Source of the DNA: Desulfovibrio sp.
GTDB lineage: Bacteria; Desulfobacterota; Desulfovibrionia; Desulfovibrionales; Desulfovibrionaceae
Direction: 5' to 3'
DNA: 64,000 nucleotides
NCBI GenBank assembly: GCA_017528345.1
Contig: JAFXOX010000001.1
Span: 1 to 64,000 of the forward strand
The translations under genes were made by a program, and so were the position numbers. The notes under the pieces were generated by a model. The model was not told the DNA's origin. It made no database searches and saw only the letters and a program-made list of their open reading frames with translations. This document shows, one piece after another, positions 44,578-59,253 of this stretch. Each line of letters starts with the position of its first letter. Positions within the stretch are counted from its first letter, which is position 1.

Positions 44578-45088
44578 GGAAACACATCCTGAAAAAAAAA
44601 TCTCGGCAAGTCGCCAAAAAAGAGAGCTGATCAACCTTTGAGCGCGCTAACCTATCCTCAAGGCCATATTTTTGCAAGAACGCCGTTTTCTCACAAACAC
44701 GCAATCAACCACGCTTGCCAGGCGCCACACCGCAACACAAGCCGCACACACACGTTCTTCACGACCTTTGGAAACGTACGAAGTTTTTTGTGCCGACCAA
44801 TCAGCCCCAAAGCTACCATCTCTTTGCCCGCCACTTCATCCCGTCTCATCGACTTTCATTGCCAAAGAGATCTTTATTCCGCAATGTGAGCAGTCACAGG
44901 GAAACGGCACAAGACCTGCTCAGCAAAAAGCATAAACGCCCACGGACAAAACGTGGCAGCAAGCTCTGCTTCACAAAAGATCGCAGATCTCGGCATGTCT
45001 ACGCACGCTGCCACACTTCTTGACTGTGCAGTAGGATAGGTTAGATTACAAACATGAGGTCAGGCAAAAAGCAGAGACTGGAGCTTGT
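44578..45088. other. Non-coding region with a 12-bp inverted repeat
   Basis: There is no convincing gene. CTAACCTATCCT at 44647-44658 and its exact complement AGGATAGGTTAG at 45033-45044 flank about 374 bases. Each copy lies in a promoter-like setting reading outward. On the minus strand TTGCAA precedes it, ahead of the small membrane protein. On the plus strand TTGACT (45020-45025) and TAGATT (45042-45047) precede the rpn gene. It could be a shared operator or the ends of a small degenerate insertion; no target duplication was seen. Confidence 0.4.
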
Positions 45089-45928
45089 ATGCAGAATGTA
45101 GAGATGAGATGGCAGGACGTTGGCATAAGCAACAATTTCATCTTTATTCATGTTTTGCAAAACAAATCACTTGCTAGTAAGTTGCTTAAATTGATAACTC
45201 ATATATAAATTGTAGATATTGACACGCCGAAACCAGAAAAATATTTTGATTCATTTATTGATGCAAAGTCTATAAAATCTTATATTTATATTTCAGATAT
45301 AAATAAAAATATATACAATATTGAATGTCAAGTCAAAAATGAAAAGAAAGACCCTTTAAATCTAAGACAGCGCTTTATACATTCAACATTGTCTGTAAAC
45401 AGTCTTGATAAGGGGAAAAAATATGAAAAGTTGCAAAATAATTTTGTTATATTTATCTGCAAATATGATTACTTCAATTGTGGGTTTCCAGTCTATGAAT
45501 TTAATAATAAGAAATGTGAAAAACATGAAAATATAGAACTTAATGATTTAACACATACCATTATCTTAAATTCTACGTATAAATATAAAGATGGTGTCGA
45601 CCCAGATCTCCTTGGTTTCCTTGATTATTTTAATGGAAGCGAGCCAAAAAGTGAAATTGCTAAAGAAACAAGCGATGAAGTACAACGTGTAAAGTCTAAA
45701 AATACTATTAAGGAGCAATTTATGAATTTGTCTATGATGATAAGAGACGCAGAAGTCAACGCTTATGACGATGGTTACAATAGTGGATTTGATAGTGGAT
45801 CAAAAAATACAAAAATTGAAATTGTAAAAAATATGCTAAATGATAATAAAAGTATTGATGAAATCATAAAATATACACACCTAACTGAATCTGAAATTTA
45901 CAATATTAGATTAAGTATGCAGCAATAA
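45089..45928 (+). pseudogene. Rpn-family PD-(D/E)XK nuclease gene with an in-frame stop
   Basis: The frame starts at ATG 45089 with GGAG ten bases upstream and reads NNFIFIHVLQNKSLASKLLK, the Rpn N-terminal helix. TAA at 45206-45208 interrupts it, after which the same frame continues for 240 codons. The second part has the nuclease core (IYNIECQVKNEKKDPLNLRQ), the middle domain and a tail of alternating charged helices. Rpn proteins are DNA nucleases linked to recombination and, in published E. coli work, to phage defence with an internally started antitoxin (RpnS). The full length would be 279 residues. The domain assignment is firm. The stop may be real decay or a sequence error; a TTG at 45389 could start a shorter product. 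Confidence 0.8.
45722..45928 (+). CDS. Internal start of the Rpn tail (RpnS-like small protein)
   Basis: Inside the rpn gene, AAGGAG at 45710-45715 stands six bases before an in-frame ATG at 45722. This could yield a 68-residue protein, MNLSMMIRDAEVNAYDDGYN... ending LSMQQ, that equals the C-terminal tail. In E. coli, such internally translated tails (RpnS) bind and restrain the full-length nuclease. The two free-standing copies that follow begin at exactly the equivalent ATG, which supports this being a real translation unit. Confidence 0.5.
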   Translation: MNLSMMIRDAEVNAYDDGYNSGFDSGSKNTKIEIVKNMLNDNKSIDEIIKYTHLTESEIYNIRLSMQQ

Positions 45929-45970
45929 TTTCTACAATAACAATATGTGTATTATATAAAGGCATATTAT

Positions 45971-46189
45971 ATGAATATTGCTACGATGATAAGAGACGCA
46001 GAAGTCAATGCTTATGACGACGGATATAATAGTGGTTTTGATAGAGGATTTGATAGTTGAGCAAAAAATACAAAAATTGAAATTGTCAAGAATATGCTAA
46101 TTGATAATAAAAATTATGATGAAATCATGAAATATACACACTTAACTGAATCTGAAATTCACAATATTAAACTAAACATGCAACAATAA
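45971..46189 (+). pseudogene. Second, free-standing copy of the Rpn tail, with a stop
   Basis: The frame of 72 codons begins ATGAATATTGC, with MIRDAEVNAYDDGYNSGFD and NTKIEIVKNMLIDN, and ends LNMQQ. It is close to the tail of the preceding rpn gene but extended by a few codons (GFDRGFDS). TGA at 46058-46060 (codon 30) interrupts it. AAAGG lies upstream. It looks like a duplicated antitoxin-like cassette that has decayed. Confidence 0.65.
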
Positions 46190-46307
46190 AGTATATAATT
46201 GACATATCTTTTAAGAAAGCATAAAATTGTTAAATTTTTTATGCTGAATACATTGAATAAATTTCTAAAGAACTTAAATCATGATATTAAAAATAAAGGT
46301 GTAATAT

Positions 46308-46498
46308 ATGAATTTTGCACTGATGATAAGAGATGCACAATAACTGGATATGCACATGGCTACAAAAATGGAGTAAAAGAAAGATGCAAAGAAGTGGCAA
46401 AGAATATGCTAAAGGACAACTGCCCTATTAATGAAATTGTACGTATACTAAAATTAGATGAGGCAGAAATTAATAATTTAAAAAATACTATACAACAG
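46308..46498 (+). pseudogene. Third, divergent copy of the Rpn tail, frameshifted
   Basis: ATG at 46308 begins MNFALMIRDAQ and then meets TAA at 46341. In another frame the sequence continues GYAHGYKNGVKERCKEVAKN, MLKDNCPINEIV and LDEAEINNLKNTIQQ, matching the same cassette at lower similarity. AAAGGTG precedes the ATG. This makes three tandem copies with different degrees of divergence, so at least two duplication events occurred. Confidence 0.6.
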
Positions 46499-46592
46499 AA
46501 AAGCATGTACAATACTTTAAATTTTTATTGCATAAATACATATCATATTTCATATATTTTTAACATACTCAAAAATTTCTAGCACAAAAAAA

Positions 46593-46628
46593 GAGCCCTG
46601 ATATAGCATATCTGTTATATCAGGGCTC
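46593..46628 (-). terminator. Terminator downstream of islB
   Basis: A perfect 12-bp stem (GAGCCCTGATAT at 46593-46604 with 46617-46628) is followed on the minus strand by seven T residues. It ends the islB transcript and shields it from the rpn region. Confidence 0.85.
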
Positions 46629-46655
46629 AAATGCATAAGTTAGAGCATACAGAAG

Positions 46656-47624
46656 CTATGCACTCTGAACCTTGTCCTTGGGCCTGTGCAAACGCTCATG
46701 CAGGATACTTTGTGCAAGGTCCTGCAACACATGCATTTTTTTCTGATTGAGCTGCACGTCACCCATGGGTACCGGGCGATCAAGGAAGTGATATTTCTGG
46801 GTACCAAGACGGTGATAGGGCAACATTTCGTATTCCACACGCGTAAAGGGCTGAAGAAATTCTGCAATCGCCTTGATGGTCTTGGCATTGTCGTTAAAGC
46901 CAGGAATGACAGGGGTTCTCGCACGGATAGGCAAATTGGGAAATTCTTCAGCAAGAATTTTGAAATTGGCCAAGATGCGTTCATTGGTCATGCCAGTCTG
47001 GGCCTTATGCACCTCAGGATCAAGATGCTTGATGTCAAAAAGCACCTGCCTGAGATACGGGGCAGCCGCGCGTATGGTTTCCTCTGGCACCATGCCGCAT
47101 GTTTCTATGGCACAGCGGATATGCCGTTCATGGGCCTCGCGCAGAAGCGCCAGAGCATAGTCTTTTTGCAGGAGAGGTTCGCCACCGGAAAGGGTCAGAC
47201 CGCCGCGTGAGCGCACGTAAAAGGCCATATCCTGTTCAACCACGGAAAGCACATCGTCCACAGTACGCATCTTCCCATAGACCAAAAGCCCCTGGGCCGG
47301 ACAGGCGCTGGCACAGGCTTTATCCGTACAGCTCGCACAGGCCTTCCGGTCAATGACAGGCAGGTCACTGTCGCCAAGACGGATGGCTCCGTAGGGACAC
47401 GCCACAATACAGTGGCCACATTTGGAGACGCCAAGGCAACGGCCGGCGTTGAAGGCAAGATCAGGCTCGGCCTTCTGGGACTCAGGATTGCTGCACCAAC
47501 GACATCTGAGAGCACAGCCCTTCAAAAAAACAATAGTGCGGATGCCTGGACCATCATGCACGGAAAATTTCTGGATATTGAAGACCATTCCCTTCTGCTG
47601 GCTGTCGAGACATTCCTGACTCAT
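46656..47624 (-). CDS. islB: Isethionate sulfite-lyase activating enzyme
   Basis: This radical SAM activase (322 residues) installs the glycyl radical on IslA. The cluster motif is in FLKGCALRCRWCSNPES (CxxxCxxC). An eight-Cys ferredoxin-like insert follows (CGHCIVACPYGAI and CASCTDKACASACPAQ), as in class III activases. GGLTLSGGEPLLQ is the SAM-binding region. It lies directly downstream of islA with an intrinsic terminator between them, so it needs read-through or its own promoter. Specificity is inferred from islA. Confidence 0.9.
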   Translation of the reverse strand: MSQECLDSQQKGMVFNIQKFSVHDGPGIRTIVFLKGCALRCRWCSNPESQKAEPDLAFNAGRCLGVSKCGHCIVACPYGAIRLGDSDLPVIDRKACASCTDKACASACPAQGLLVYGKMRTVDDVLSVVEQDMAFYVRSRGGLTLSGGEPLLQKDYALALLREAHERHIRCAIETCGMVPEETIRAAAPYLRQVLFDIKHLDPEVHKAQTGMTNERILANFKILAEEFPNLPIRARTPVIPGFNDNAKTIKAIAEFLQPFTRVEYEMLPYHRLGTQKYHFLDRPVPMGDVQLNQKKMHVLQDLAQSILHERLHRPKDKVQSA

Positions 47625-58989: not shown

Positions 58990-59253
58990 ATGTTGAATAC
59001 TGGTATAACAAATTGGAAAGAAAATACAATTGACGAGTGTTTTGAAGAATGGAAAGAAAATACGATTGCCGAACATATTGAAGAGTGGAAAAAAGAAATA
59101 TTAGAAGAAATTATACCTATATGGAAAAAAAATTTTCAAAAAAACTATATCTCTAAAATTATTAAAAATCTTATAGCAATGGGTATAAATGAAGAAAATA
59201 TAGCATATGCTGTAAATTTATCCCTTAATGAAGTCCGATTACTCATGCATTAA
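58990..59253 (+). CDS. Small protein resembling an Rpn C-terminal tail
   Basis: This 87-residue, AT-rich gene begins at ATG 58990 with GGAGG eight bases upstream. The N-terminal half repeats W-K-E-N-T-I-type units (NWKENTIDECFEEWKENTIA, then EHIEEWKKEILEE). The C-terminal half (SKIIKNLIAMGINEENIAYA, VNLSLNEVRLL) has the same helix plan as Rpn tails (EIVKNMLNDNKSIDEIIKYT). No nuclease domain is attached. It could be an orphan RpnS-like antitoxin or a remnant. The similarity is by pattern only. Confidence 0.6.
   Translation: MLNTGITNWKENTIDECFEEWKENTIAEHIEEWKKEILEEIIPIWKKNFQKNYISKIIKNLIAMGINEENIAYAVNLSLNEVRLLMH

What the first reader, a model, noticed from the sequence alone, without database searches (positions are those of the whole stretch)
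45089..46582. Rpn nuclease gene with an internal RpnS-type start, followed by two free-standing tail cassettes
The rpn frame contains AAGGAG six bases before an in-frame ATG at 45722 that would yield only the C-terminal tail. Downstream, 45971-46189 and 46308-46498 are separate copies of this tail, each starting at the equivalent ATG (ATGAAT then MIRDA). In E. coli, Rpn toxins are reported to be restrained by such internal products. Here the antitoxin-like segment appears duplicated as stand-alone cassettes, and the nuclease part carries a TAA (45206), as do the copies (TGA 46058, frameshift near 46341). This could be an antitoxin array outliving its toxin, or a reservoir for exchanging tails between Rpn proteins.
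Basis: partly seen in the sequence, partly recalled or inferred. Interest (0 to 1): 0.72.

Follow-up and report, generated by a model that had tools for sequence, protein, structure and literature searches.

The report
Decayed Rpn toxin with spare tails
The window holds a dead copy of a bacterial DNA-cutting defence gene (rpn) followed by two dead spare copies of the tail that normally acts as its built-in antitoxin; working versions of this layout occur elsewhere in the same genome and in distant bacteria, where the spare tails look like stand-alone antitoxins that can also replace the tail of the toxin.

Summary
45089-45928 is a broken Rpn-family nuclease gene (TIGR01784) with an in-frame AAGGAG+ATG at 45722. 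Two tail-only copies follow at 45971-46189 and 46308-46498, both broken. The nuclease has also lost its catalytic Asp (Tyr, 45281-45283). A close relative lacks the whole island. The layout is not an artefact: the same genome and genus carry many rpn loci with tail-only cassettes, several with intact toxins and intact cassettes. In 15 internal-tail/cassette pairs, similarity starts abruptly at the RpnS start codon, and copies mostly differ by whole four-residue units of the dimerisation helix. In E. coli, single RpnS-type copies downstream of rpn (ypaA) were published in 2023. There, 3101 of 5426 genomes have two tails; in six sampled single-tail genomes the cassette's C-terminus is fused to the nuclease, i.e. 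a tail switch. New here: multi-cassette arrays, the boundary at the start codon, the repeat mismatch, and purifying selection on one orthologous pair of stand-alone tail-like genes. Best reading: a decayed member of a family of free-standing RpnS antitoxin/tail-exchange cassettes. At this locus only the internal 68-aa tail could still be made. Function is inferred, not shown.

The parts
45089..45928 (+). rpn pseudogene (Rpn family nuclease/putative transposase), read through 279 codons
   Evidence: TIGR01784 69.7 bits, cut-off 52.1; AT-rich island, GC 0.20-0.37 against about 0.5 on its upstream flank
45206..45208 (+). in-frame TAA, codon 40
45281..45283 (+). TAT (Tyr65) where the relatives have the catalytic Asp of the PD-(D/E)XK site
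   Evidence: alignment A1: all six relatives have D in the aligned column
45710..45715 (+). AAGGAG, Shine-Dalgarno-like, 6 nt before the internal ATG
45722..45928 (+). internal RpnS-type ORF, 68 aa, intact; predicted long helix 3-40 plus two short helices
   Evidence: TIGR01784 tail positions 217-271
45971..46189 (+). free-standing tail cassette 1, one 4-residue unit longer than the internal tail, TGA at 46058
46308..46498 (+). free-standing tail cassette 2, TAA at 46341 and frame change near 46343
44598..46670 (.). stretch absent from the closest relative (251 bp there), i.e. the rpn island with flanks
   Evidence: 83% identity ends at 44597 and 81% identity resumes at 46671 in G024 C83
58990..59253 (+). 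another free-standing, intact RpnS-like tail (87 aa) of the rpn type on contig C66, preceded by GGAGG; no nuclease part beside it
   Evidence: TIGR01784 weak, 15.8 bits

Best explanation
The locus is a decayed Rpn genes-within-gene toxin-antitoxin unit with two decayed free-standing RpnS cassettes. In the intact relatives it probably works as follows. RpnL, the full-length nuclease, is held by RpnS, the C-terminal tail made from the internal start (shown by others for E. coli). Duplication of just the RpnS translation unit, from its start codon through the stop, places extra tails downstream. Each is a small gene with its own ATG. These tails then differ from the resident tail in the number of 4-residue units or in the last helices, so they probably no longer pair with the resident toxin (inferred from the +1-repeat experiment in E. 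coli). They can neutralise RpnL versions carrying the matching tail (former, sister or incoming copies). By recombination through the shared 5' end they can become the new tail of the toxin, which changes toxin and antitoxin together in one step. In this window toxin and both cassettes are already dead; only the internal tail frame is still open.
For: Family: TIGR01784; a profile of the relatives matches the solved E. coli RpnA-S chain 7th0 over the tail (E 0.0095); predicted three-helix tail with a long first helix. Recurrence: one search counts 10 of 32 rows (one locus entered twice) of rpn-with-tail ORFs in the genus followed by a tail-only ORF, and C41 was missed by that script; intact examples are C41 and C55, G035 C158, G035 C82. 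Boundary: in 15 pairs identity is 0.29-0.32 upstream of -12, 0.56 at -12..-1 and 0.93 from the start codon on. Repeat mismatch: in the tabulated tail pairs 10 of 12 non-zero length differences are multiples of 4 (p=4e-5 against 1/4), and 8 of 8 two-tail E. coli pairs differ. Tail switch: end B in 5363 of 5426 E. coli genomes, end A in 3101; in the six sampled genomes without end A, end B is fused to the nuclease or its remnant. Constraint: window internal tail against cassette 1 dS 0.40, dN 0.09 (Fisher p=7e-4); orthologous stand-alone tail-like genes C79/G024 dN/dS about 0.04-0.07.
Against: No expression, binding or toxicity data for any Desulfovibrio-type copy. The pair tables are hand-assembled and not random samples. 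The cassette-to-internal mismatch could arise simply because repeat numbers drift fast. Some copies are truncated rpn genes that start upstream of the RpnS start (C15; L092, L096, L110), so decay by partial duplication also happens. One pair (C68 internal/cassette 1) has no repeat difference. The C79 small genes match the Rpn tail only weakly (17.7 bits) and also match FliH models. The Foldseek match to RpnA-S is weak (E 0.69).
Confidence: 0.7

Rival explanations
1. Plain decay: the tail copies are leftovers of tandem rpn duplications whose nuclease parts were deleted; they have no function, and the open frames elsewhere are simply young.
For: At this locus all downstream copies are broken. 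Truncated rpn copies with upstream sequence exist (C15; L092, L096, L110). Arrays of tandem rpn duplications are known (PMC10327210).
Against: In 15 pairs similarity begins at the RpnS start codon, which random deletion would not give. Synonymous change exceeds non-synonymous change between window tail and cassette (p=7e-4). Most tail-only matches listed in the genus survey have no stop inside. YpaA protein is detected in E. coli (PMC10327210).
Confidence: 0.2
2. Extra dose: the cassettes only raise the amount of antitoxin against the adjacent toxin.
For: They lie directly downstream on the same strand, and one pair is 93% identical with equal length (C68 internal/cassette 1).
Against: Most pairs differ in 4-residue units or C-terminus. 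In E. coli one extra unit abolishes neutralisation (PMC10327210). Cassettes persist beside dead toxins (C68).
Confidence: 0.1
3. Assembly or sequencing artefact: the stops and repeated tails come from collapsed or erroneous sequence.
For: Draft genome of 85 contigs; a repeated 147-bp element breaks the sister locus at C68/C20.
Against: The copies differ from each other by many substitutions with an excess of synonymous change. Similar loci occur in other genomes, including complete E. coli chromosomes.
Confidence: 0.03

Closest known systems
Free-standing RpnS copies of E. coli: ypaA downstream of rpnE, and the copy downstream of rpnC (Zhong et al. 2023, PMC10327210)
   Same: Tail-only gene directly downstream of its rpn, starting at the same point as the internal RpnS; +4-residue unit relative to the internal tail, as in window cassette 1; K-12 rpnE is annotated inactive, as the window copy must be
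   Different: E. coli has one downstream copy; here up to two per rpn plus arrays of four tail-only frames (G024 C105). Here the rpn is TIGR01784-type in another phylum, and the window cassettes are broken
Intragenic Rpn toxin-antitoxin system (RpnL/RpnS)
   Same: Nuclease part plus short helical tail with an SD+ATG at the junction; 4-residue repeats in the first tail helix
   Different: Window toxin has a stop and has lost the catalytic Asp
Orphan cdiA-CT/cdiI and rhs tip arrays (Poole et al. 2011, PMC3150448)
   Same: Arrays of spare C-terminal modules behind the main gene, sharing a short stretch at the junction that allows the main gene to be reloaded by recombination
   Different: Not secreted toxins, no homology. 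Here the spare module is itself the antitoxin and tail in one, so a switch would keep toxin and antitoxin matched

Membership tests
Rpn family nuclease (TIGR01784) | score over the family cut-off | tested here: met
   69.7 bits against 52.1, read through the TAA
Rpn family nuclease (TIGR01784) | intact PD-(D/E)XK site | tested here: not met
   Asp replaced by Tyr65, ExQ kept; stop at codon 40
RpnS intragenic antitoxin | SD and start codon inside rpn that give only the tail | tested here: met
   AAGGAG at 45710, ATG at 45722
RpnS intragenic antitoxin | three-helix fold with long first helix | tested here: inconclusive
   Model helices 3-40, 45-52, 56-67, but low confidence in the first half; 7th0 RpnA-S is the fourth Foldseek match, prob 0.87, TMt 0.70, but E 0.69; profile match to 7th0 E 0.0095
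RpnS intragenic antitoxin | four-residue repeat variation in helix 1 | tested here: met
   +4 residues in window cassette 1; multiples of 4 in 10 of 12 pairs that differ
RpnS intragenic antitoxin | translated separately and blocks RpnL | not testable with these tools
   needs ribosome profiling and co-expression
Free-standing downstream RpnS copy (ypaA type) | tail-only ORF downstream of rpn, similar to its own rpn's tail, starting at the RpnS start | tested here: met
   Window copies 105.6 and 26.8 bits; boundary at the start codon
Free-standing downstream RpnS copy (ypaA type) | intact reading frame | tested here: not met
   TGA 46058; TAA 46341 plus frame change; met at C55, C41, C68, G035 C158 and C82
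Orphan CDI/Rhs module | homology to cdiA/rhs with VENN or tip motif | not tested
   only the layout is compared; no membership claimed

The most novel reading that the evidence does not exclude
Free-standing RpnS cassettes form a specificity-switching store for Rpn defence: tails that differ in 4-residue register or last helices sit behind the toxin with a shared start region, protect against toxins carrying the matching tail, and replace the toxin's tail by one recombination that keeps toxin and antitoxin matched. The E. coli rpnE locus exists in both states in nature, and Desulfovibrio-type genomes carry arrays and orphan sets.
Probability: 0.35. Interest if true: 0.72.

Novelty: new variant of a known kind. 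Interest (0 to 1): 0.5.

Why it matters
The role of the separate RpnS genes is open in the one experimental paper found here (PMC10327210). The data here turn that into direct tests: do they spare the cell from other Rpn versions, or are they stored tails? E. coli rpnE/ypaA, with two-tail and one-tail strains in large numbers, is an ideal natural system. If tail switching holds, Rpn joins CDI/Rhs as a system that changes specificity by reloading a C-terminal module, with the antitoxin built into the module.

Tried and rejected
Pfam gave nothing for the tails or the nuclease over cut-off; the NCBIfam model did for the nuclease and matched the tails weakly. Sequence search of the 68-aa tail against solved structures returned designed ankyrin proteins, judged chance. 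Stop-codon recoding was rejected: one TAA, one TGA and frame changes at different places in different loci. Phage-borne relatives of the window tail: none found. A source for the swapped C41 tail end was sought in 75 genus genomes and not found. The link of contigs C68 and C20 rests on matching spacer sequence and tail type; the 147-bp element that separates them occurs at two other contig places, so the join is likely, not certain. Which of the two E. coli states came first (insertion of tail A or deletion between the repeats) was not resolved.

Full report
What is there. Read through its TAA, 45089-45928 encodes a protein that scores 69.7 bits against TIGR01784, the Rpn nuclease family. The internal ATG at 45722 follows AAGGAG by six bases and opens a 68-codon frame. 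Two copies of this tail follow, at 45971 and 46308. Both carry lesions. The nuclease has, besides the stop, a Tyr (45281-45283) where all six aligned relatives have the catalytic Asp, so the toxin is dead twice over. The block is AT-rich (GC 0.20-0.37 against about 0.5 just upstream). In the closest available relative, G024, the DNA aligns at 83% up to 44597 and at 81% again from 46671, with 251 bp between. The island is therefore an insertion here or a loss there.

It is one of many. Searching the own genome with the protein and with the family model and reading the loci gives the following. C68 has a second rpn, 50% identical, with a frameshift and a stop at other places in the nuclease part. 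It is followed by an intact tail ORF and, on contig C20, probably a third intact tail with more repeats. C55 has an intact rpn whose internal tail has six more 4-residue units than the intact cassette behind it. C41 has an intact rpn followed by a cassette with nearly the same first ~45 codons but a different end. C25 has an rpn frameshifted just before the internal start, followed by two further tails (one intact, one cut short). Tail-only frames without a nuclease beside them lie on C29, on C79 (two in tandem) and in this window at 58990-59253. In the genus survey 29 of 68 genomes have a match, 13 over the cut-off, and tail-only matches are common. G035 C158 and C82 have intact rpn plus a tail copy; G027 C22 has rpn plus two; G024 C105 has four tail-only frames. 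Counting rpn-with-tail frames that have at least 450 nt of sequence behind them, the script found 10 of 32 rows followed by a tail-only frame; one locus was entered twice, one call (L159) is doubtful, and C41 was missed by the script. So it is roughly a third. In 80 loci from other groups, mostly Bacillota and spirochaetes, it is rarer; clear cases are in Selenomonadaceae and Clostridia. The genus is Desulfovibrio-like: the G019 C5 locus is identical in its rpn frame to L054, a record titled Desulfovibrio sp..

Where the copies begin. For 15 internal-tail/cassette pairs (14 from this genus, one from E. coli) I compared the DNA around the start codon without gaps. Identity is 0.29-0.32 from -60 to -13, 0.56 in the last 12 bases, and 0.93, 0.90 and 0.86 in the three 12-base steps from the start codon on. 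The unit that was copied, or that has been kept, is the RpnS translation unit. This is not universal. The copy behind C15 begins about 25 codons upstream of the internal start, and L092, L096 and L110 are truncated rpn genes. The pairs were assembled by hand from loci where a tail copy had been recognised, and motifs starting with the internal Met were used to place them; the upstream fall in identity is not affected by that choice.

How the copies differ. Pairwise protein alignment gives length differences of +4, -24, +4, -4, -16, -8, -40, +12 and the like, at the repeat region; 10 of 12 non-zero differences are multiples of four. In E. coli K-12, ypaA has one unit more than the internal tail of rpnE. 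In seven further two-tail E. coli loci the difference is two to five units; none of the eight pairs is equal. Zhong et al. showed for RpnC that one extra unit stops a tail from neutralising the unaltered toxin and vice versa (PMC10327210). It follows, as inference, that most cassettes do not restrain the toxin they sit behind.

A tail switch in nature. In E. coli the proximal end (..TQLTDADIPNC[HY]) is present in 3101 of 5426 genomes and the distal end (..TQLSEADLAANNH) in 5363. In all sampled genomes with two tails the proximal end is on the nuclease and the distal end is the separate gene. In the six sampled genomes with one tail the distal end is on the rpnE frame (L192, L193, L194, L197, L201; L202 is interrupted by IS2 upstream). 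L191 has only the distal motif detected in a two-ORF locus and is left out. Either the distal tail was displaced by insertion of a new one, or the proximal tail was deleted between the shared 5' stretches; both exchange the tail of the toxin. Zhong et al. mention loss of the separate gene by fusion of the nuclease part with it, so the event is known in outline; the reading as tail exchange and the repeat mismatch between neighbours are not in the main text parts read here.

Selection. Between the window's internal tail and cassette 1 there are 11 synonymous differences on 35.8 sites and 14 non-synonymous on 168.2 (dS 0.40, dN 0.09; Fisher p=7e-4), so both copies seem to have been kept as protein for much of their divergence. 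Two stand-alone tail-like genes on C79 and their orthologues in G024 have dN/dS of about 0.04 and 0.07. Their match to the Rpn tail is weak (17.7 bits) and FliH models match as well, so they are supporting, not central, evidence.

Fold. AlphaFold2 gives helices 3-40, 45-52 and 56-67 for the window tail, with low confidence in the first half (mean pLDDT 74.9). This agrees with the published three-helix RpnA-S with a long first helix. Foldseek lists RpnA-S (7th0) fourth, at E 0.69. A sequence profile of the genus proteins finds 7th0 at E 0.0095.

Verdict. The window locus itself is a relic. Its layout is a member of a known but little understood kind, the free-standing RpnS gene, in a multi-cassette variant. 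The function as matched antitoxin store and tail reservoir is inferred from known RpnS biology, from the start-codon boundary, from the repeat mismatch and from the two E. coli states. The similarity to orphan CDI/Rhs modules (PMC3150448) is one of working principle only.

Noticed in passing
window 58990-59253 (+): Intact free-standing 87-aa RpnS-like tail with GGAGG before its ATG, related to the tail of the rpn on contig C66; no nuclease part beside it.
   Followed up: partly
L013/L186 (G000 C79) and L185 (G024 C27): Two tandem tail-like small genes downstream of an rfbC-type gene, conserved between two species with dN/dS about 0.04-0.07; they also resemble FliH coiled coil.
   Followed up: partly
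L011 3670-3809, L012 1-141; also G000 C35 and C19: A 147-bp element with inverted ends GGCTCTA..TAGAGCC, present at four contig places, two of them contig ends; it sits between two tail cassettes and probably breaks the assembly.
   Followed up: partly
L188 position 1234 (G024 C38, reverse strand): Chimeric cassette: first codons of the local MSDI.E tail family joined to the body of another rpn subfamily's tail (SGVNDACLVLK..), a tail shuffle between subfamilies.
   Followed up: partly
L090 3767-3979 and L093 868-1020 (Selenomonadaceae): Cassettes that keep the ribosome-binding site, the start and about 15-20 codons of the internal tail, then have an unrelated end.
   Followed up: partly
window 46593-46628: Strong inverted repeat (16-nt arms, 4-nt loop) between the rpn island and the glycyl-radical activase gene on the other strand, terminator-like.
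   Followed up: no
L171/L187 3415-5675 (G024 C105): Array of four tail-only frames; neighbours have dN close to or above dS in one pair (0.124 against 0.104), possibly diversifying.
   Followed up: no
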